39,083 nucleotides of DNA from an uncultured Elusimicrobia bacterium (GTDB taxonomy: Bacteria; Elusimicrobiota; Endomicrobiia; Endomicrobiales; CAIRNS01), in contig CAIRNS010000017.1 of the NCBI GenBank assembly GCA_903880015.1, positions 1-39,083 of the forward strand, written 5' to 3'. Position 1 is the stretch's first letter, and each line of letters begins with the position of its first letter. The notes under the pieces were generated by a model. That model was not told where the DNA came from. It saw only the letters and a list, made by a program, of their open reading frames with translations, and did no database searches. Position numbers and translations under genes: made by a program. Positions 1-39,083 of the stretch are shown here, piece by piece.

Positions 1-394
1 CAGTGCACATCCAACAACCCCGCCCGCGCCCATCGCTCTTCCCTTCGGGGTGACGGTCAGGAATTGGACCCCAAGCTCCGACGGGACGCGGATGTGGGTG
101 ACGGGAAATGACGGCAAGCTATACCTTTTCGACAGTGCACATCCAACAACTCCGCCCGCGCCCTTCGCTCTTCCCTTCGGTGTGACGGTCTGGTATTTGT
201 GGCCTAGCCACGACGGGATGCGGCTGTGGGTGAAGGGAGACGACGGCAATCTATACTGTGTCGACAGTGCACATCCAACAACCCCGCCCGCGCCCATCGC
301 TCTTCCCTCCGGCGTGAAGGACAAGAATTTGACCCCTAGCCCCGACGGGACGCGGCTGTGGGTGTGGGGACAAGACGGCGGGTTGTATGTGGTG
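1..394 (+). repeat. 132-bp in-frame tandem repeats encoding 44-residue propeller-like units
   Basis: The phrase coding for DSAHPTTPPAP begins at -1 (cut by the window edge), 131 and 263, an exact 132-bp period. The part coding for DSAHPTTPPAPxALPxGV is almost identical at the DNA level, while the next stretch (RNWTPSSDGTRMWV, WYLWPSHDGMRLWV, KNLTPSPDGTRLWV) varies. The array continues upstream out of the window and ends near 394. Confidence 0.92.
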
Positions 395-3300
395 AATGCG
401 CCCCACGGCTCGAAAACAGCAATAGCCGAAAAGATCAAAGCGCAGGTGCATACATCGCATGTTTCTGTTTTTGGGGTTCCCGAGATCATCGGAGGTTCAG
501 TCGTCAGCGGGAACGTGCGTCTTGCTCAATCAAACGACACCGAGTACCCCGGTGAGGATTACGAATACGCGCCAAAATCAAGCCCGACGATGAATGGGGT
601 GATACACGAGATACTGCGCGGGATGGGGCTCAAGCGGAACATCTTGCTGGTAGGCCCAGTGGGGACGGGGAAGACCTGGGTGGTAAGAGCGGTGATGCGT
701 TTGTTGAAGAAACGGGTAGAAATGATATCGGTGCACGAGGGGACGACGGAACGGGACCTGACCTGCTGGCCGAAGACGAAACGGGAAGGCGGGGAACTCT
801 CGACGGACTATGAGTTGTCAGCGTTGGCGGTGGCGATGTTGGAAGGGCGGAGCTGTTTGGTGGATGAAGTCAGCCGGGGGGGCACGGGTGTTCTTGCGGT
901 GCTCAACCACGCCCTGCAGTACCGGGAGCTGGTACTGCCGAAGGTAGTGAAGGTGCAGTTGAGCGACGGGAGCTGGTTTGAGGGCGACCGGATAAAAGCG
1001 AAGGAAGGATTTAGCTTATTTATGACGATGAACCCGCCCGGGGGGCGTGTTGAAGTCAACGATATGATGTACGACTTTATGGACCGGATGTACACGATAC
1101 AAGTCGGGTACATGCCTCAAGAGGAGGAAGTTGATTGGCTGATGCGCACCGTGGGGGAAACCAATCCAGCCGTCAGGCAGGAAATAAAAAATCTGGTAAC
1201 CTATGTTGCGCATATGCGTACGACACAAGACAAGAAGCCTTCATTGCGTTCATTGGAGCGGGTAGTACGAGCCATGAAACAGTATCCCGGAATGGACCCC
1301 GTCGTGTTGTTGAACCTTAAAATGGGGCTGGCGCTGTCAGGGAATGCTGTTCGGGAAGGATTTAAAACGGCGCTTGCGTCAAAACGATTTGGCCAGGATA
1401 TACAAACGGTTTGGCGGCAGGTAAAACAGGTTACCGCGGGAGCCGGCGCGTTGGTGATGAATATGGCGATGAATATGGCCTCGGGTATAAGCAGTCAGTG
1501 GGAAGGGCCGTATGATCCAAAAGAGTGGTGGAAGTTCGGCGCGCGACCCCTTTCCATCCAATCACGCGCTCGTCAGCGTCGGACGGTATTAGAACAGGTG
1601 GTACGCATAGTTTCCGGCATCAGTATGCCGTTGAAAGCGTGGTACAAGCTTCCGGGACCGATGGGTGGGATGAAAACCTGGCGGTGTGTGTGGAACACTA
1701 AGGACATGGTCCCGCGAGAGATGAACTTTGTAGCGGAAGATCTTCTGGAACCCAAGACGGAAGAAGGGGTTCTGGGCGTGCTGTACCACGAATTGTTCGA
1801 GCTCATGTATCGTCATCCCGAAGCGACGAGCGCTGAATTCTTAAAAAAGCCGGGCGCTGCGTTGCTTAATAACGGTATTGGGGATTTGTGGATCAACGAG
1901 ATAGGGTCAAAGGAGTTTCCCGGGGCCCGGGGATGGTTGTTAGAATGTTACTACGAGAACTATGCGCCGGATCGTTTTGGGACCATCGAAGAAGGCAGGG
2001 GGGTGATGGAAAAGCAGCCTTTTGCATCGCAATTCGTCTTTGGGTGCATATATGGGTGGGTCTATAACAACATCTATAACAACACTGCCGATCCACTGAT
2101 CACGGATGAAGGGGTTTTGCAGGCGATTGACTCGCTGCGAGAAATAGTGCACGCGGTGTATATGACGATGGATGTTGGGGAACATAAAAAGCTGATGGAA
2201 GAATTATATGAGAGCCCTGAATTCCAAGCGTTGCTTGCGCGGGACAAGGAGAATGAGCAGCAACAAGGGGAGCAGCAACAAGATGAGCAGCAACAACGCG
2301 AAGAACAAAAAAACAAAGGGCAACAAGGCGAAGGGCAACAAGGCGATGGGCAACAAGGCGATGGGCAACAAGGCGATGGGCAACAAGGCGAAGGACAACA
2401 AGGCGAAGGGCAACCAGGTGAAGGTCAACCCGGCGATAAAACGATGCCATCCCTTGATTCCGGAGCACAACATGTTGACGAGAACGGCAACGCATTAACC
2501 CCGGAACAACGTAAAGCAGCTTCAAAAGTAATGAATGAATCGATAAAGAAAGCGGAAGCGGAAGCCAAACGCGCAGCGGAAGAGGAAGAATTAGCGCGGA
2601 TGGAAGAAGCGGCGCGTGGAGCGGAACGCAAAAAAGCTGAACGAGAAAAGGAAGGGATCACTGCGGATGAACAGGGTCAGTATGATGTACGCTATGAACG
2701 GGTAGTTCGTGACATTTCGCGGATGAAGATGGTGTTCCGTCGGTTTTACCAGCAGCAGAAGGGCTATTGGGAGCGGTGGCGGGAACGGGGAATGCTTGAC
2801 GACGCGTCAATACCGCTGATAGTTGCTGGGGAAGACCGTGTATTTAAAAAGCGCAAGGAACCCAAAAAGTACAAGGTGCGTATTTCTTTGTTGGTTGACC
2901 AAAGCGGGAGCATGGGCGGCTACAAAATCAGTGCTGTTGCGGACACGGTATTGATGATGCTTGAATCAATCAAAGATGACCAAAAAAAAGGGGTGCTGGT
3001 CGAGGTTGCAGGATGCTATGATTTGACCCCGGGCGTAAAACAGGATGACCCGCAAGCGCATTATTTCGAGTATGGCGAAAAGATAACCAAACAGCGCATT
3101 ATAGAAGTGTTGTCGGAAACCAAACAGACTTACGGCGGCAATAACGATATCAAAGGTATATTCTGGGCGCTGCGTCGTATCCCGAAACAAGAGAGCAACA
3201 CCTTAAACCTGGTAATCCATTTTTCCGACGGTGATCCCAACTTCCAATTCAGCAGGGACCTATTTAGGAATATGCTGGCAAAGCGCCCGGATGTTATGAC

Positions 3301-6169
3301 GGTCGGTTTGGGGATTGGTCCAGAAGCTGATTTGGTGATGGACCTGTACCCGAAAGGGCAGGGTGCATGGGCGGAACGCACGCGCGATGTGCCGGACAAA
3401 GTGGGTGCGATACTGATGAAGTTTATAGGCCGGCTCGGCCGCAACGGTATGGCAACAACGGAGCGAAAAGGCCGGGAGGATATGCTTGATATGGAAATGA
3501 CGGTGCATGGCAAACCTACCGGTCAGGCGAATTATGCAGCGGCGGAAGGGCTGCGCAACGCGGTTTTGTTTGGCATGGTGCCGTTGGTTGTGCTCGGGTT
3601 TTTGTCCGTGATGATGGCGGGGACCGGCATAGCGATTCCTTTGGCTCTGGCGATACGGGGTATGGGTGCGGTAACGGTATTTTTGTTTGGCAGGGCGGTG
3701 GCGGCGCTTCTTGTAGAGAGCGCCACGGGGTCGCCAGTGATATCGTTTAGAAATGGTAAAGTACATTTTCTGCCGGCAGCTCACGAAGGCGACGGACTTG
3801 CGGGGCCGGCACTGAATGCAGCAGTAGGGTTCGTCGGTCTTATCGCTATCGTGCACGAAAGCGTTCATCAACTCTTGTACTGGCTTGGCGGTCCGCGGCG
3901 CGGATGGTGGCATTCTGAATCGCTGGCGTATGGTCTTGAGGCCGCGGGGTTGGGAATGACAGTAACGCTGGCAATGGGCGGGTTCGGGTGGGTGCCTTTT
4001 GCCGTAGTATATGGCAGTGCGCTGATTGCTGTTATGGCCGGTCAGGTGAACATGCATGCGGTGATTCGCTCAGCGGGATCCTCGGTACGATGGGCGTCGT
4101 TTGTCGGCGCCGGCGCGCATCTGGCAAGATTTTCGGGATTGGGCAAACCAGCGAGCATGGTGCATCGCCTCGCTCCCGAACTGGAAGGGAAACACTATGT
4201 GGTATATGACGCGGATTACGGGTACACGCGCGGGCGGGTACAATCGTTGACGGCAGCGGGCGTAGCAACGATTGGAATTGCGGCGTTGCCGGCGGGATAT
4301 ACGGGTACAGCAATGACCATGAGCGGAAATATCAATGAGGGTGGGATGGGGTTAGGCCGCATTGATGTCAACGGCCGGTTCTGCGATGTGGTGGTTGAAC
4401 GGGTGGGCACGGGCTGGGTGCTTATGTATCATTTTATTGACGGGAACAACGCTGATGAATCCGGTACCGGTGCAGCGGTTATCGGATGGTTACAGGGGAA
4501 CAACCGCGCAGCGGGCCTGCTGGGGATGAAATCTGATGGCAAAGGTTTTGCAGTAGATGTTATCGAGACCAGGGATGTTGCCGGGCTGGGCAGGAACAAT
4601 CAATTTTCGCGGAGCATGGTGGTATACGCCGGCCGCCCGCAGGTGTCAGATGAACGATTTGAAAAAACCTTTGACGGAACGATTGACCCCGAAGCGTCTA
4701 TAGAAACGCAGTTGACGGGCATGGATGGATACTACCAACAAAAACGCATTGAGCGTTTTGCCAAAATCGACCCCGGCGTATTTGAAACCGTTGCTGCGTC
4801 CGGACTGAGCCGTACGGAAGTGCTCAGCAGGATTAGTGTGCACGCCGGTGCGGGCATAGGGACCTTCGTTATAGACGGGATGAATAATACAGACAGTGCG
4901 GCTGTTGTAACGGCCATCAAAAAGGACAAATCATTGTCTGAGGTAAAGATTTTCATACGCTTTGCGGTGAGCACTGCCGGGGAAAGCGCAACCATTGGTA
5001 CCGGAGCGGGGGACCTAGTTCGTGCCGGCGCGGCGGGCATTGTTCTGGATGTCGTTGGTCAATGGGAAGGGCGTGCCGAAGGGGTACAATCAGTGCGCGC
5101 GCGGATGTCGTTGATAAACCCAGCGAGCGCTTTAGTTGTTTTCGGTGATGCATTGCCGGCGTTGGACGGTGTGACTAAAGGTTTACGCTACGCGCCCGGC
5201 ACAGCAATGCCTACAGGGATGAACACATCATGGATTGAGCTTATCGAAAACAGTATTCCGCGCGCGGTTGACGATGGGGCTACCGTGCAGGCATTTGAAC
5301 AGATTATTGGGAACACAGGTGTTGCGATGGTAGGATTCAATGGCGCGCTTCTGCAGGGGCTTGCAGATGAATTGACGGGTACAGCAGGATGGGATGTAGT
5401 GGGCTATATAGAGAATCTATTGACGAAGCGTGCTCAGCAGAAAATGATTGACCCGGCGGTTGCCTACCAAAGCGGTCGGATAGCGGCGTATGGGATTGAT
5501 GTGCGCGAGCTTCCTGTTCTTAACGATAGTGCCATTGCGTTGCTGACAGCAACGGTAAAGAATTATGATGCCACCGGTGATATCGGGAATGTGTTTGCGG
5601 AAGGGTTTATTAATCTTTCTGGCCTGGCAGGGAACTATTTTGGAAAACGGTCGCGTGTAGCAGCGGTGCTGGCAAACGAGCCGGAGCGCCTGGCACAGCG
5701 GCATATGGCGGCAGGTATGGCGCGGGGCCTTTTAGAGCGTCAACGGTCATTGGCAGTTCTCGGCGAACGATACACGCTGATGCCTGCGGCACAACAGAAA
5801 ATGTACGGCTGGAGCATTGTCACCGTAGAAATGCAGTCAAACAAACGGATATCGATGCCAGGCGACGCCACGACAGTCGAGCGGGAACAGGCCTACACCG
5901 CGTACACGGCTTTGCAGATTACAGCAGACGAACAAACACGCAGAGCACTGGCTGATAATGCGGGGCTGAGCGCGCCTGAATGGATTGCAAAATTGTGGGG
6001 TATTGTCGAGACGGCACCCGCGGAGTCACGCCCTGCAGCAATTGTTGAGTTATTAATGATACTGGATATCACCGCTGACACAAGGAACCCGTTGATAAAC
6101 GAGCGCCTCAGAAAGTCCGCCGCTATAATCGCTCCCAGCGTTATTCAATCCATCCTCAGTGCCGCTTAA
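2..6169 (+). CDS. Giant multidomain protein, 5' end outside window: propeller repeats, MoxR-like AAA+ ATPase, VWA, HExxH membrane region
   Basis: The reading frame is open from base 2, so the true start lies upstream; the GTG at 50 is internal to a repeat. Counting that GTG as residue 1, the visible order is: about 115 residues of 44-residue SDGTRxWV-type repeats (beta-propeller-like); an AAA+ module with Walker A GPVGTGKT (202-209), Walker B CLVDE (269-273) and sensor-1 Asn (N328), resembling MoxR/CobS ATPases; a helical region with HELFE (580-584), similar to a metallopeptidase HExxH but lacking the second His; a Q/G/E/D-rich linker (736-797); a VWA domain with MIDAS motif DQSGS (950-954); hydrophobic segments from about 1171 to 1330 containing HESVH (1269-1273); and about 700 C-terminal residues, part of which (about 1558-1800) alternates strands and helices like a barrel. 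AAA+ and VWA proteins of the MoxR/CobS-CobT type usually remodel or insert metals into partners as separate subunits; here they are fused. The actual substrate is unknown. Confidence 0.9.
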   Translation, partial: SAHPTTPPAPIALPFGVTVRNWTPSSDGTRMWVTGNDGKLYLFDSAHPTTPPAPFALPFGVTVWYLWPSHDGMRLWVKGDDGNLYCVDSAHPTTPPAPIALPSGVKDKNLTPSPDGTRLWVWGQDGGLYVVNAPHGSKTAIAEKIKAQVHTSHVSVFGVPEIIGGSVVSGNVRLAQSNDTEYPGEDYEYAPKSSPTMNGVIHEILRGMGLKRNILLVGPVGTGKTWVVRAVMRLLKKRVEMISVHEGTTERDLTCWPKTKREGGELSTDYELSALAVAMLEGRSCLVDEVSRGGTGVLAVLNHALQYRELVLPKVVKVQLSDGSWFEGDRIKAKEGFSLFMTMNPPGGRVEVNDMMYDFMDRMYTIQVGYMPQEEEVDWLMRTVGETNPAVRQEIKNLVTYVAHMRTTQDKKPSLRSLERVVRAMKQYPGMDPVVLLNLKMGLALSGNAVREGFKTALASKRFGQDIQTVWRQVKQVTAGAGALVMNMAMNMASGISSQWEGPYDPKEWWKFGARPLSIQSRARQRRTVLEQVVRIVSGISMPLKAWYKLPGPMGGMKTWRCVWNTKDMVPREMNFVAEDLLEPKTEEGVLGVLYHELFELMYRHPEATSAEFLKKPGAALLNNGIGDLWINEIGSKEFPGARGWLLECYYENYAPDRFGTIEEGRGVMEKQPFASQFVFGCIYGWVYNNIYNNTADPLITDEGVLQAIDSLREIVHAVYMTMDVGEHKKLMEELYESPEFQALLARDKENEQQQGEQQQDEQQQREEQKNKGQQGEGQQGDGQQGDGQQGDGQQGEGQQGEGQPGEGQPGDKTMPSLDSGAQHVDENGNALTPEQRKAASKVMNESIKKAEAEAKRAAEEEELARMEEAARGAERKKAEREKEGITADEQGQYDVRYERVVRDISRMKMVFRRFYQQQKGYWERWRERGMLDDASIPLIVAGEDRVFKKRKEPKKYKVRISLLVDQSGSMGGYKISAVADTVLMMLESIKDDQKKGVLVEVAGCYDLTPGVKQDDPQAHYFEYGEKITKQRIIEVLSETKQTYGGNNDIKGIFWALRRIPKQESNTLNLVIHFSDGDPNFQFSRDLFRNMLAKRPDVMTVGLGIGPEADLVMDLYPKGQGAWAERTRDVPDKVGAILMKFIGRLGRNGMATTERKGREDMLDMEMTVHGKPTGQANYAAAEGLRNAVLFGMVPLVVLGFLSVMMAGTGIAIPLALAIRGMGAVTVFLFGRAVAALLVESATGSPVISFRNGKVHFLPAAHEGDGLAGPALNAAVGFVGLIAIVHESVHQLLYWLGGPRRGWWHSESLAYGLEAAGLGMTVTLAMGGFGWVPFAVVYGSALIAVMAGQVNMHAVIRSAGSSVRWASFVGAGAHLARFSGLGKPASMVHRLAPELEGKHYVVYDADYGYTRGRVQSLTAAGVATIGIAALPAGYTGTAMTMSGNINEGGMGLGRIDVNGRFCDVVVERVGTGWVLMYHFIDGNNADESGTGAAVIGWLQGNNRAAGLLGMKSDGKGFAVDVIETRDVAGLGRNNQFSRSMVVYAGRPQVSDERFEKTFDGTIDPEASIETQLTGMDGYYQQKRIERFAKIDPGVFETVAASGLSRTEVLSRISVHAGAGIGTFVIDGMNNTDSAAVVTAIKKDKSLSEVKIFIRFAVSTAGESATIGTGAGDLVRAGAAGIVLDVVGQWEGRAEGVQSVRARMSLINPASALVVFGDALPALDGVTKGLRYAPGTAMPTGMNTSWIELIENSIPRAVDDGATVQAFEQIIGNTGVAMVGFNGALLQGLADELTGTAGWDVVGYIENLLTKRAQQKMIDPAVAYQSGRIAAYGIDVRELPVLNDSAIALLTATVKNYDATGDIGNVFAEGFINLSGLAGNYFGKRSRVAAVLANEPERLAQRHMAAGMARGLLERQRSLAVLGERYTLMPAAQQKMYGWSIVTVEMQSNKRISMPGDATTVEREQAYTAYTALQITADEQTRRALADNAGLSAPEWIAKLWGIVETAPAESRPAAIVELLMILDITADTRNPLINERLRKSAAIIAPSVIQSILSAA
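2321..2440 (+). repeat. 15-bp coding minisatellite (QQGEG/QQGDG units)
   Basis: Eight consecutive 15-bp units from 2321 encode QQGEG, QQGDG (three times), QQGEG (twice), QPGEG and QPGDK. They sit inside a longer Q/E-rich tract starting at 2255. The tract links the AAA+/helical half of the giant protein to the VWA half, and is probably a flexible, length-variable linker. Confidence 0.93.
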
Positions 6170-33736: not shown

Positions 33737-34798
33737 ATGGAAAATGTAATTGATGATTTGCAGCTTTCCTCGTATGAATTTGAGGTTCCTAAAGAGTTGA
33801 TTGCGCAGGCGCCGCTGGCGGAGCGCGATGCGTCGAAATTGCTGGTTGTGCGCCGGCAGAATGAAAGCATCGAACACCGGCAATTTCGTGATATCGTGGA
33901 ATATCTTGATGCGGGCGATTGTTTGGTTATCAATAAAACCAAGGTGGTTCCGGTCAGATTGTTTGGTAAAAAGGAAACAGGGGGAATCGTTGAGGCTCTT
34001 TTTCTTGATCCGCGGGAATTCTCTTCAGGGACGGTTCGTGCGCTGCTAAAACCGTGGATGGACCCGGGGAAAAAAATAATTTTTTCTGGCGGATTGATAG
34101 CGACCGTTCAGGGGCGGGCGGCTACAGGGGAGACCATATTATTATGCAACGGAACAGCGATAGATACTCTTTTGACCGCAGCCGGGCATATGCCGTTGCC
34201 CCCGTACATAAAGCGCGATAAAAGTGGCGATGGGCGGGAACTACAGGACAAACAACGCTATCAGACAGTGTATGCGCGGGACAGCGGATCTATAGCCGCC
34301 CCGACAGCCGGATTACATTTCACTGATCAGCTCTTTGCGCGTCTCAGGGAGCGGGGAATCGAGGTTGCCGAGATAACACTGCATGTCGGCTGGGGAACGT
34401 TTCGTCCGCTGGTCGCGGCAACCGTAACCGATCACCGAATGCTCCCCGAATGCTATGAACTGACCTCTGAGGCAGCCCGCAAGATTAATCGCGCACACAG
34501 CATCGGCCGCAGGGTTGTGGCGGTAGGTACCACCTCGGTCCGGACGCTGGAATCGGTCGCTGAGGGTGCAGGAAAAACGATGGTCGCCGCCACCGGGGAA
34601 ACATCGCTTTTCATTCATCCGGGATATCAATTTAAAACGGTCAATGCTCTGATAACCAACTTTCATCAACCCCAGTCAACCCCATTGCTTTTGACATCCG
34701 CCTTTGCCGGTCGCGAAAAAATCCTTGCTGCGTATAGCGAAGCCATTCGCCGTCAGTATCGTTTTTTTTCCTACGGCGACGCGATGCTGATTCTTTAA
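33737..34798 (+). CDS. queA: S-adenosylmethionine:tRNA ribosyltransferase-isomerase
   Basis: This 353-residue QueA builds the epoxycyclopentanediol ring of queuosine on tRNA from S-adenosylmethionine. Motifs: YEFEVPKELIAQAPLAERDASKLL, INKTKVVPVRLFG, MPLPPYIKR, DKQRYQTVYARDSGSIAAPTAGLHF, LHVGWGTFRPL, AVGTTSVRTLES, TSLFIHPGYQFKTVNALITNFH and QSTPLLLTSAFAG. Length is typical. AAGAGAAA precedes the ATG. It converges on the minus-strand sigma-54-like gene, with stops 19 bp apart and no evident terminator between. Confidence 0.98.
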   Translation: MENVIDDLQLSSYEFEVPKELIAQAPLAERDASKLLVVRRQNESIEHRQFRDIVEYLDAGDCLVINKTKVVPVRLFGKKETGGIVEALFLDPREFSSGTVRALLKPWMDPGKKIIFSGGLIATVQGRAATGETILLCNGTAIDTLLTAAGHMPLPPYIKRDKSGDGRELQDKQRYQTVYARDSGSIAAPTAGLHFTDQLFARLRERGIEVAEITLHVGWGTFRPLVAATVTDHRMLPECYELTSEAARKINRAHSIGRRVVAVGTTSVRTLESVAEGAGKTMVAATGETSLFIHPGYQFKTVNALITNFHQPQSTPLLLTSAFAGREKILAAYSEAIRRQYRFFSYGDAMLIL

Positions 34799-34816: not shown

Positions 34817-35864
34817 CTACCGCTGATCAATCTCATTTCTGCACTTGCAAACCATTCTTCTGGAAACCTTGATTCCCTGTGACTCAAATAACTCATCTTT
34901 TATTTTTTTCATCGGAAAAGCGGGAGAATTTTTGGAAGGAATTTCGCAGTATATGCTGTATGACATCCTTGTTGTGGGGTAACAATGATTGTAGTGAAAC
35001 TTCCGTCGCATGCGGCGTAACGAGGCTGCGGGCGTATATGGTGCGGGAAACGGTGCTTTGAGATATCTTTAATCTGACAGCTAAATCTTTCGCACTAAAT
35101 ACTTTTAAAGAAGATAATTCATTGGATAGAAAAAAATCTTTTTGAATGTCCATCAATGTTTCGATGATGGAAAGAAGAATTGCCTTTTTAGCGTTAAACA
35201 TGTCGAGTGACGACAGAATTTCGTTTACCCGTACTTTTTCTTCAGCCGACAAACCCCTTTTTAGTGATGTCACTTTTTTATCATCAATCAGATACGCGCC
35301 TTTCTCCACGCTCATTGAATAGCATCCGTAGGTCAGCCGGCCGTGTTCGTTGTCGATTTTTGCAACCTTTCTAAAAGAGACGCCCTGCAGATGTATTTTC
35401 GATGGATGGAAAAATTCAGATAGCATAGAGACATCGTTCAATAAGGCGACGATTCTTTGCACTGTCGCCACCGGGATATGCAGGAACGATGAAACGGACT
35501 GGGCGTCAAAATGTTCGTTTTCGTAAAAATAAGTTTTGAATGCTGCTATACCGATGCTTCTTATAACCGGCAGTAACTCTTTGTTGGCGTCGATAATGCC
35601 GGAAATATCGGCATTGTCCGGTGAATGATGAACAATATTGTCATCAAATTCAAGGATATCCGAAGCGGTTGCGAACCGGTGTTTTCTTTCGTGCCTGACG
35701 GCGCCGGAGGTAAGCAATATGTCAAAGAGGGGATCATTTTCCACAGTACGAATCAGGGCATGCAGATCATGTTCGTTTATAGATAAAATACCTGCCAGTT
35801 TATAACGATAAACCAGTTTGTGTTTAAAGGTGTTCTTTTGCGCAAAGGTAGTCGATATGTTCAC
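34817..35864 (-). pseudogene. rpoN: Divergent RNA polymerase sigma-54 (RpoN-like), frameshifted near its C-terminus
   Basis: The main frame (35864 to 34893, 323 residues, GTG start) has a degenerate region I (KLVYRYKLAGILSINEHDL, then ENDPLFDIL), a core-binding middle, a KKAILLSIIETLMDIQKDFF stretch and a helix-turn-helix AKDLAVRLKISQSTVSRTIY (258-277), all matching sigma-54 order. It stops just after FSDEK. In the next frame the expected end follows: IKDELFESQGIKVSRRMVCK, including an RpoN box (SRRMVCKCRN, 34835-34864) like consensus ARRTVAKYRE. Removing one A from the A7 run (T7 on the plus strand, 34903-34909) joins them into a 348-residue protein reading FSDEKIKDELF. Sigma-54 is normally about 450-500 residues, so this form is short and diverged. 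It may be a sequencing error, a real mutation, or slippage-dependent. Confidence 0.85.
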
Positions 35865-36014: not shown

Positions 36015-36479
36015 ATGGACGCAATGCATGAGAACAGCAGGATACTATCCTGTCTCGGACGGGTAAATGTGGGCGTGCTGGCTACTCTGGAAAAAAAGTT
36101 AGGCACCATGAGACAGAGAGTAATGTACTACGGATTTGACGAGAATTTCAGCTGTTACCTGTTGTCTGCCAAAGGAAGCCCCAAGACCAATCACGCCCTG
36201 GCGTCCATCGATGTTTCATTTATGGTTTTTGGATTGGAAGACCCCTATGACAAGTCATGGGAAGTTGAAATTGACGGCAATAGCGAACTCTTAACGAAAG
36301 CGGTGGATATTAGTTTTGCCCTTGAAAAATTAAAGGGGCGCAATCCGTTTGCAGACATAGCCATAGAATCGGGTATCAGCGCCCAATTTGATTTAATACG
36401 GATCAATCCCACCATTGTAAGGTTTAGAGTGTACGGTGAAATACTCAAAGGCATGCCTCCCACTATCGTGGTTTTCTGA
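36015..36479 (+). CDS. Pyridoxamine 5'-phosphate oxidase-like FMN-binding split-barrel protein
   Basis: This 154-residue protein resembles the PNPOx-like split-barrel group. It has a leading VGVLATLEKKLGTMRQRVMYY strand pair, YLLSAKGSPKTNHALAS, VSFMVFG, a WEVEIDGNSELLTK strand and a final FDLIRINPTIVRFRVYGE. Members bind FMN, F420 or haem and include small redox enzymes and general-stress proteins. It is the first gene of an operon with a Cys-rich sensor kinase, 6 bp apart, which hints at redox or flavin sensing. The ligand is not provable from sequence. Confidence 0.75.
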   Translation: MDAMHENSRILSCLGRVNVGVLATLEKKLGTMRQRVMYYGFDENFSCYLLSAKGSPKTNHALASIDVSFMVFGLEDPYDKSWEVEIDGNSELLTKAVDISFALEKLKGRNPFADIAIESGISAQFDLIRINPTIVRFRVYGEILKGMPPTIVVF

Positions 36480-36485
36480 TAATCA

Positions 36486-37982
36486 ATGATACAATGCTGG
36501 CAATATTTTAAATGCAGTAAGTCCGAATGTCCTGCGTACCAGTCAGGTGATTCTCGCTGCTGGTTGCAGTCCGGAACATATTGCCATGACGAAATACGCA
36601 CTAATTGTCTCGAGAAAATGGAGCAATGCATTACCTGCGAAGCATTTCTCTCTAATTATCAGGAGAAGGATTTCAAGGAAACAATCCGTCTGATACATGA
36701 ACAATTTGTTGTGTACAACGCAACGGTCAATGAAAAAACAAAGGAACTTGAAGACGGCAAAAGGAAATTAACGGAGTTTAAGCTTACCAGTATATACATG
36801 CTGCAGCAGCTGGATAAAAAAAGCACGGAATTGACGCAAACGAAAAGCAATATACTCAATATTATCGATAATGTTAATGATGCTCTGATCGTGTTTGATG
36901 CGGATGGCATAATCGAGCTTATTAATCAGTCAACATTGGATCTTTTAGGGTATACCAGAGAGGAACTGGTCGGCAAACCGGCACATATTATTTTCGGCGG
37001 AGAAGATCAGGATAAGCTCTTTAAAAAAATCGTCGATACGCTTATTGAAAAAGGTGTGGTAAAGGACCGGGAGATTGTTTTCTTGACGAAAACCGGCGAG
37101 AAGATCCCGATGAGCCTTTCCGGACAATCAAAAAAATCAGAGCAGAGCGGTATTGGCGGTTTTGTGTGTACGGCCAGAGATATTCGCGCCATGAGCAGAT
37201 TAGTCAGGGATCTTGAGGAATCAAGAAATGATCTGGAGAGAAAGGTTGACGAGCGAACCCGGGATCTTCGTGCAATGCACGGTCAATTCATACAGTCCGC
37301 TAAGTTGGCGACGGTAGGTCAATTTGCGGCGGGGATCGCCCACGAAATAAATAACCCTTTGGGTGCCATCATTAATTATATCAGGGTCATTCTTGCCAAT
37401 CATCAGCTTCAGGGACAGGAAAAGGGATATTTAGAATTAAGTTTAAAAGGGCTTTTTAAAATTGAGAATATCGTCCGGCAGGTATTAGGATATTCGGCAC
37501 GAAAAACCGCCGAACCGCGATACACTCTTATTAATCAGGCAGTGGAGGATTCCATCGCCTTCATGCATCATAAACTAACCAAAAAGAACATTGAGCTTGA
37601 TTTAAAGTTGGACAAGGCGCTGAGCGAGATTCTCATCGATCCTTCTCAAATTCAGCAGATATTCACCAATGTCATCAGTAACGCGGTAGATGCCATGGAA
37701 CAAAGCGGAAATTTATCGATAGAGACAGCATCTCTTAATGGTGAGCAAACCATTCGCTTCACTGATACCGGCAAGGGAATAAAGGAAGACGATCTGCACA
37801 GGATATTCGATCCTTTTTTTACCACGAAGGATGTGGGCGAAGGAACGGGATTGGGCCTATTTATCGCTTATAATATCATTCAAATATATCAAGGGAAAAT
37901 AACCATTACCAGCACAGTAGGCAAGGGCACAACGGTCATCATTTGTTTCCCTGAAAGTGCCGGCATTCCCGCAGCAGTATAG
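36486..37982 (+). CDS. Sensor histidine kinase: Cys-rich (two-CW-like) domain, PAS, HisKA, HATPase
   Basis: This 498-residue kinase has no transmembrane segment, so it is cytosolic. The first 51 residues hold eight Cys (4, 10, 15, 25, 33, 41, 48, 51) including two CW pairs, like the two-CW Cys-rich domains of anaerobe signalling proteins. A coiled coil (about 60-115) leads to a PAS domain (about 118-230) and a second coiled coil. The phosphoacceptor is in GIAHEINNPLGAI (H286). The ATPase has N box NVISNAVDAM, DTGKGI, FDPFFTT and GEGTGLGL. The organisation is NtrB-like. An NtrC-type regulator follows 13 bp later. The Cys cluster may bind zinc or an iron-sulfur centre; that is inference. Confidence 0.93.
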   Translation: MIQCWQYFKCSKSECPAYQSGDSRCWLQSGTYCHDEIRTNCLEKMEQCITCEAFLSNYQEKDFKETIRLIHEQFVVYNATVNEKTKELEDGKRKLTEFKLTSIYMLQQLDKKSTELTQTKSNILNIIDNVNDALIVFDADGIIELINQSTLDLLGYTREELVGKPAHIIFGGEDQDKLFKKIVDTLIEKGVVKDREIVFLTKTGEKIPMSLSGQSKKSEQSGIGGFVCTARDIRAMSRLVRDLEESRNDLERKVDERTRDLRAMHGQFIQSAKLATVGQFAAGIAHEINNPLGAIINYIRVILANHQLQGQEKGYLELSLKGLFKIENIVRQVLGYSARKTAEPRYTLINQAVEDSIAFMHHKLTKKNIELDLKLDKALSEILIDPSQIQQIFTNVISNAVDAMEQSGNLSIETASLNGEQTIRFTDTGKGIKEDDLHRIFDPFFTTKDVGEGTGLGLFIAYNIIQIYQGKITITSTVGKGTTVIICFPESAGIPAAV

Positions 37983-37995
37983 AGGAAGGATTATT

Positions 37996-39083
37996 GTGAA
38001 TAGTGAAGGCATAAAGGCAAACATCCTCGTTGTTGAAGACGATGATCTCATGCAGATAATGATACGGGATTCATTGGTTAAGGTGCATTATGCTTTGACG
38101 GTGGCGGGGGACGGATTGGAAGGGTGGAGTAAATATCAGGAGTCATTATACGATCTGGTAGTTGTGGATCTTAACTTGCCCAAGCTTGACGGACTGGGAC
38201 TGCTTAAAAGAATAAAAGAACATTCTCCGGAAACGATAGTCATAATGATGACGGCGTATGGCAGTATTGATACAGCGGTCCGGGCGATGAAATTGGGTGC
38301 GTATGACTATATAACGAAACCGTTTCTGGCTGAGGAACTGCAGTTAATTATTCAAAAAGGACTTGAGTTCAAGGCCCTTAAAAAGGAAATAATCCTTCTC
38401 AGAAAAGAATTAAGCAGGAAATACGGTCTTGATAAAATTGTGGGGAAAAGTCAGCCCATGCAGGAGATATTCGGGCTGATAGAGAATATTTCAAATGCCA
38501 ACTCGACGGTTTTGATACAGGGCGAAAGTGGGACCGGCAAAGAATTGATAGCTGAAGCCATACATCATGCAAGCAGTCGAAAAAATAAGCCGTTAATAAA
38601 GATAAGCTGCATGGCGTTAGCCGAATCCATTCTTGAAAGCGAGCTTTTTGGCCACGAGAAGGGAGCGTTTACCGATGCGATATCGCAACGCATCGGGCGT
38701 TTTGAGCAGGCCGACGGCGGCACATTGTTTTTTGACGACATTGACGATATGAGCAATGCGGTACAGTTAAAACTTCTGCGGGTGATCCAGGAAAGAGAAT
38801 TTGAAAGGGTCGGCGGAAGCAAAACAATAAAAATTGATGTTAGGATTATCGCGGCAACCAAGAAGGATTTAAAAGAGGCAGTGTCAAAAGGTGCGTTCAG
38901 GGAGGATCTGTATTACCGGTTAAATGTTATTCCCATTGTAATCCCGCCATTGCGGCACAGAAAAGAAGATATACTGTTACTGGTTAATCATTTTCTCCTT
39001 AAATTCAATACTGAAACAAAAAAGAACATCACCATTTCCGAGCAGGCGTTGCAGCAACTATTTAATTACGACTGGCCGGGCAA
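37996..39083 (+). CDS. NtrC-type sigma-54-dependent response regulator, cut by window end
   Basis: GTG 37996 follows GAGGAAGGA. The 362 visible residues hold a receiver domain (E14, D15, D16; phosphoacceptor D58 in VVVDLNLPKLDG; T86; K108) and an AAA+ domain with Walker A GESGTGKE (176-183). The sigma-54 contact loop is GAFTDA (223-228) instead of GAFTGA, and Walker B reads TLFFDD (243-248) where most relatives have a Glu at the last position. FREDLYYRLNVIPI and LFNYDWPG are visible before the end. The DNA-binding Fis domain lies outside. It is the likely partner of the kinase upstream and of the sigma-54-like factor next door. Confidence 0.95.
   Translation, partial: MNSEGIKANILVVEDDDLMQIMIRDSLVKVHYALTVAGDGLEGWSKYQESLYDLVVVDLNLPKLDGLGLLKRIKEHSPETIVIMMTAYGSIDTAVRAMKLGAYDYITKPFLAEELQLIIQKGLEFKALKKEIILLRKELSRKYGLDKIVGKSQPMQEIFGLIENISNANSTVLIQGESGTGKELIAEAIHHASSRKNKPLIKISCMALAESILESELFGHEKGAFTDAISQRIGRFEQADGGTLFFDDIDDMSNAVQLKLLRVIQEREFERVGGSKTIKIDVRIIAATKKDLKEAVSKGAFREDLYYRLNVIPIVIPPLRHRKEDILLLVNHFLLKFNTETKKNITISEQALQQLFNYDWPG

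What the first reader, a model, noticed from the sequence alone, without database searches (positions are those of the whole stretch)
34817..35864. Sigma-54-like gene split by one extra base in an A7 run
Seen: the minus-strand frame with sigma-54 middle and HTH ends right after FSDEK, and the next frame continues IKDELFESQG...SRRMVCKCRN, an RpoN box. Deleting one A at 34903-34909 gives FSDEKIKDELF, which matches the family pattern LSDEKI.ELL. Established: homopolymer runs are sites of sequencing error, phase variation and transcriptional slippage. If real, the un-slipped product lacks the -24 reading RpoN box and slippage would set active sigma-54 levels. The rest of the frame is intact, which argues against old decay.
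Basis: partly seen in the sequence, partly recalled or inferred. Interest (0 to 1): 0.72.

Follow-up and report, generated by a model that had tools for sequence, protein, structure and literature searches.

The report
Frameshifted sigma-54 in a one-promoter module
The only sigma-54 gene of this uncultured Elusimicrobiota bacterium carries one extra A that cuts off its DNA-reading tail, while its dedicated sensor, activator and single target promoter are all intact, so this is most likely a fresh knockout or an assembly slip rather than a slippage-based control switch.

Summary
On the minus strand an A7 run (34903-34909) ends the sigma-54 frame at FSDEKNKR*; one A fewer restores FSDEKIKDELFESQGIKVSRRMVCKCRNEIDQR, an RpoN box, and lifts the Pfam Sigma54_DBD score from 34.1 to 51.4 bits. 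The organism is an Endomicrobiales member (Elusimicrobiota), and this is its only sigma-54. The protein is a compact sigma-54 type found in 142 of 341 genomes of the phylum; inspected relatives have the tail in frame and no comparable A run.

The gene sits in a self-contained module. Sensor kinase and activator are divergent from it; the activator is completed on contig C25, followed by the genome's only exact -24/-12 site upstream of a gene, before fixABCX. Everything except the one base looks intact, which rejects old decay.

Slippage control is not supported: A7 lies below the detected limit for E. coli RNA polymerase, slippage mostly inserts (wrong direction), the run is not conserved, and 102 A7/A8 runs lie in frame-consistent coding sequence in the sampled 42% of this genome. 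Recent null allele and assembly error remain; reads decide. The compact one-sigma/one-activator/one-promoter module is the more interesting find.

The parts
34893..35864 (-). compact sigma-54 gene as sequenced (323 aa, GTG start, stops FSDEKNKR*), lacks the RpoN box
   Evidence: Pfam Sigma54_DBD 34.1 bits
34903..34909 (-). A7 run holding the extra base relative to the family reading frame
   Evidence: relatives without a comparable run
34817..34902 (-). displaced C-terminal tail with RpoN box SRRMVCKCRN, in the +1 frame, TAG at 34817-34819
34817..34912 (-). possible small ORF: ATG at 34912-34910 opens the tail frame (31 aa) 17 nt before the upstream stop; no sign that it is used
   Evidence: read from the sequence
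36015..36479 (+). PNPOx-like small protein between sigma-54 and the sensor kinase (weak, below Pfam cut-off)
36486..37982 (+). PAS sensor histidine kinase (AtoS/NtrB-like), intact
37957..39083 (+). NtrC-type enhancer-binding protein (receiver, AAA+ with GAFTDA); runs off the contig, completed to 463 aa on contig C25 (20-nt exact overlap)
33737..34798 (+). queA, convergent neighbour; its stop lies 18 nt from the end of the displaced tail
   Evidence: name from sequence, own knowledge

Best explanation
The gene is a compact Elusimicrobiota-type sigma-54 that belongs to a dedicated module: a sensor kinase phosphorylates the NtrC-type activator, which binds a palindrome about 160 nt upstream of the single -24/-12 promoter and opens the sigma-54 polymerase there to transcribe fixABCX (electron-transfer flavoprotein operon). 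One A has been added to an ancestral A6 (or equivalent) run, so the protein as encoded keeps the core part and the -12-side helix-turn-helix but loses the RpoN box that reads -24. The most likely reading is a real, recent loss-of-function allele, fixed or polymorphic in the sampled population, at a locus otherwise ready to work. Shown: frame break, single copy, intact partners, promoter and operon. Inferred: activator binding, loss of -24 binding, recency, that the base is real.
For: Frame break and intact tail. Sole sigma-54 and sole true activator in the genome. Activator complete with HTH on C25. Site TGGCACTTTTATTGCA at C25:509-524, the only one of 10 exact genomic sites lying upstream of a gene, 58 nt before the fixA start. 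fixABCX by NCBIfam best matches, below the curated cut-offs. ATTACCTTTTAGTAAT at C25:334-349 occurs once in 1.81 Mb. No general homopolymer problem: 130 runs of 7 or more with the same frame on both sides, 7 different, all explained by gene junctions or low complexity on inspection. No frameshift in 62 kb of orthologous coding sequence. The protein departs from 11 of 45 near-invariant family columns, against 3-7 of 36-38 in the others, a hint of relaxed constraint.
Against: The intact promoter, palindrome, activator and kinase are what one would expect if sigma-54 still works, so an assembly error fits as well. The error survey bounds all frameshifts, real or artefactual, equally; it cannot tell them apart. 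The 11/45 count comes from 11 sequences and is not a rate test. The absence of detected slippage is taken from E. coli RNA polymerase.
Confidence: 0.5

Rival explanations
1. Assembly or sequencing error: the organism has A6 and an intact sigma-54.
For: All other parts of the module are intact, the displaced tail keeps its conserved residues, and a one-base homopolymer indel is a common small error.
Against: No other homopolymer frameshift in 137 long runs in coding context or in 62 kb of orthologous coding sequence; at zero found, the upper 95% bound is about 2% per run. Contig sizes and the 20-nt contig overlap look like a short-read graph assembly, where such errors are rare; this is not proof.
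Confidence: 0.36
2. Transcriptional slippage or ribosomal recoding at the A run makes a fraction of full-length sigma-54.
For: Run of A followed by T and A4; precedents exist where slippage rescues broken genes (e.g. Citrobacter tssM, PMC4256274, title and abstract only).
Against: A7 is below the detected limit for E. coli polymerase (PMC6260861); deletions in homopolymers are rare (PMC5574713); +1 A and a -1 ribosomal shift both lead to DEKK*; no run at this place in the relatives inspected; many A7/A8 runs lie in intact genes.
Confidence: 0.07
3. Phase-variable switch: sigma-54 ON at A6, OFF at A7.
For: In Campylobacter jejuni 7-8 base A/T tracts in flgR and flgS switch the sigma-54 regulon, and short-tract indels occur in rpoN (PMC7677240, PMC3930126).
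Against: Run short and not conserved; A7/A8 runs are commonplace here, so nothing marks this one as selected for instability.
Confidence: 0.05
4. The truncated protein is functional as such, or the 31-aa RpoN-box peptide is made separately by reinitiation at ATG 34912.
For: An ATG opens the tail frame 17 nt before the stop.
Against: No SD-like sequence seen; the inspected family members keep both parts in one chain.
Confidence: 0.02

Closest known systems
RpoN / sigma-54 (Aquifex RpoN 5ui5; E. coli-type 7qv9)
   Same: DNA-binding half with HTH and RpoN box; NtrC-type activator next door; canonical -24/-12 sites
   Different: 350-400 aa instead of about 477; none of 11 members matches the Pfam activator-interacting or core-binding models; PDB profile matches cover only the C-terminal half
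NifA/sigma-54 control of fixABCX in diazotrophs (own knowledge)
   Same: fixABCX behind a -24/-12 promoter with an activator
   Different: no nitrogenase: the only NifH-family hit is weak and partial; activator is a two-component NtrC type; sigma factor, activator and target are adjacent
Homopolymer frameshifts in Campylobacter flgR/flgS/rpoN
   Same: A/T-tract indel disabling a sigma-54 pathway
   Different: no evidence of switching here; run not conserved

Membership tests
sigma-54 (RpoN) | Sigma54_DBD with HTH and RpoN box | tested here: met
   only when read through: 51.4 bits, profile 15-150; as sequenced 34.1 bits, profile 15-80, RpoN box missing
sigma-54 (RpoN) | Region I (AID) and core-binding domain recognisable | tested here: not met
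   no Pfam AID or CBD match in any of 11 members; an N-terminal region-I-like stretch is visible by eye only. Hence filed as a compact variant, not as a canonical member
sigma-54 (RpoN) | co-occurs with AAA+ enhancer-binding protein | tested here: met
   sole activator of the genome is next door; across the phylum 142/341 genomes with the sigma factor and 142/336 with activators; 61 of 114 listed sigma genes have a listed activator within 5 kb (lower bound)
sigma-54 (RpoN) | -24/-12 promoters in the genome | tested here: met
   one exact site upstream of a gene, before fixA; the other nine are inside genes or without a gene close behind
programmed transcriptional slippage | long (about 9 or more) conserved homopolymer | tested here: not met
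   A7, not conserved
phase-variable contingency locus | run-length variation within the population | not testable with these tools
   needs reads or same-species genomes; none held
assembly artefact | other homopolymer frameshifts in the same assembly | tested here: inconclusive
   none found in about 42% of the genome, but one isolated error is not excluded

The most novel reading that the evidence does not exclude
A minimal self-contained sigma-54 circuit (one compact sigma factor, one kinase, one activator, one enhancer, one promoter, one operon) whose sigma factor is switched between a -24-blind truncated form and a full form by A-run length in DNA or RNA.
Probability: 0.1. Interest if true: 0.75.

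Novelty: new variant of a known kind. Interest (0 to 1): 0.42.

Why it matters
Sigma-54 is normally one factor serving many activators. Here a whole phylum carries a shortened sigma-54 whose genes often sit beside their own activator, and in this genome the predicted regulon shrinks to one promoter. That makes a natural minimal system for asking which parts of sigma-54 are needed. The frameshift itself would show how such a module is lost: all sampled genomes of the sister family f6 (taken to be Endomicrobiaceae) lack both sigma-54 and activators.

Tried and rejected
Alignment of 11 members was too divergent for the genome-contig scan, replaced by a two-member alignment. The viral collection gave nothing. 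The AlphaFold model from two sequences was poor (pLDDT 47) and is not used. A frame-switch scan with codon scores could not separate gene junctions from frameshifts and was replaced by the run-centred survey. A first scan of 42% of the genome found no clear -24/-12 site and suggested loss of the regulon; the whole-genome search overturned this by finding the site before fixA. Nitrogenase link rejected. Missing SD before the GTG start not used: many window genes lack one too. G203, which also ended early, is cut by its contig end. GAFTDA and the DD Walker B are shared by relatives and are not signs of decay. fixABCX was not found in the relatives' sigma-54 neighbourhoods, so the target differs between lineages.

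Full report
What is there. The minus strand carries a 323-codon frame (34893-35864) that ends three codons after an A7 run (34903-34909); removing one A joins it to a 26-28-residue tail with SRRMVCKCRN, ending 18 nt from queA. The Pfam Sigma54_DBD score rises from 34.1 to 51.4 bits with the joined frame. The joined tail keeps D318, L325, S334, R335, R336, R342 and E344, positions conserved in ten relatives. The gene is the only sigma-54 in the 1.81-Mb genome.

Where it comes from. The closest named relative is an Endomicrobiales MAG, 42% identical in this protein, so the organism belongs to Elusimicrobiota (phylum name from own knowledge); it is alone in its family in the collection. A profile of 11 members finds the protein in 142 of 341 genomes of the phylum, as frames of mostly 350-400 codons. 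None of 11 members matches the Pfam models of the canonical N-terminal or core-binding regions, and the best solved relatives match only in the C-terminal half. In the 16 loci read in detail the frames are open through the RpoN box where the contig allows, and no comparable A run lies at this place.

The module. The activator at 37957 runs off the contig. Contig C25 starts with the last 20 nt of the window and completes it to 463 aa with a C-terminal HTH. Roughly 230 nt behind it lies TGGCACTTTTATTGCA (C25:509-524), then fixA (GTG at 583), fixB with a ferredoxin part, fixC and fixX (named by best NCBIfam matches, which lie below the curated cut-offs). Of ten exact TGGCA-N6-TTGCW sites in the genome this is the only one upstream of a gene; the control pattern gives five sites, so most of the ten are chance. 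A palindrome ATTACCTTTTAGTAAT at C25:334-349 occurs nowhere else in the genome and sits where an enhancer is expected (function inferred). In relatives comparable sites precede other genes, often a FabF/radical-SAM cluster beside the sigma gene. The kinase/activator pair divergent from sigma-54 is shared with G006.

Error, loss or control. In 766 kb (42%) of the genome, 130 homopolymer runs of 7 or more have coding signal in the same frame on both sides; seven have different frames and each was judged on inspection a gene junction or low-complexity stretch. tblastn with relatives over 62 kb found no frameshift, but one in-frame stop in a GGDEF gene. Frameshifts of any cause are therefore rare, which does not tell a real mutation from an isolated error. 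The displaced tail is 26-28 residues and would itself have escaped the run survey, which asks for 150 nt of coding signal on each side.

Slippage is unlikely: no detectable slippage of E. coli polymerase on fewer than eight A (PMC6260861), deletions in homopolymers rare against insertions (PMC5574713), and insertion of one A, or a -1 ribosomal shift, ends at once. Phase variation has good precedents in the Campylobacter sigma-54 pathway (PMC7677240, PMC3930126) but no positive evidence here.

Verdict. A real recent null allele is slightly favoured over an assembly error; control by slippage is not supported. Papers found in the held library do not describe this sigma-54 type; one states that Elusimicrobium minutum lacks sigma-54 (PMC3162934). 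The library is partial, so novelty is provisional.

Noticed in passing
L093, L099, L101, L103, L105, L107: In six Elusimicrobiota loci a cluster of FabF-like ketoacyl synthase, B12-binding radical SAM proteins and a small membrane protein sits by the sigma-54/activator pair (in L107 beside sigma-54 without a near activator); five of the six show a -24/-12-like site before it.
   Followed up: partly
phylum-wide: Sigma-54 and activator genes co-occur in nearly equal numbers of genomes and often adjacently, as if each sigma had its own activator.
   Followed up: partly
L131:11503-12357 (G000:C7): GGDEF-domain gene with an in-frame TGA at the conserved DLDxFK position; a second disrupted gene in this genome or a local error.
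   Followed up: partly
window 39064-39083 and G000:C25:1-20: 20-nt exact overlap joins the two contigs through the activator gene.
   Followed up: yes
window 2-6169: Open frame of 2055 codons cut by the contig start, with beta-propeller-like repeats, a MoxR-like AAA part and a von Willebrand-type part; also a Q-rich repeat near 2300 (domain names by eye).
   Followed up: no
sister family f6 genomes: All sampled f6 genomes, probably Endomicrobiaceae, lack both sigma-54 and activators.
   Followed up: no
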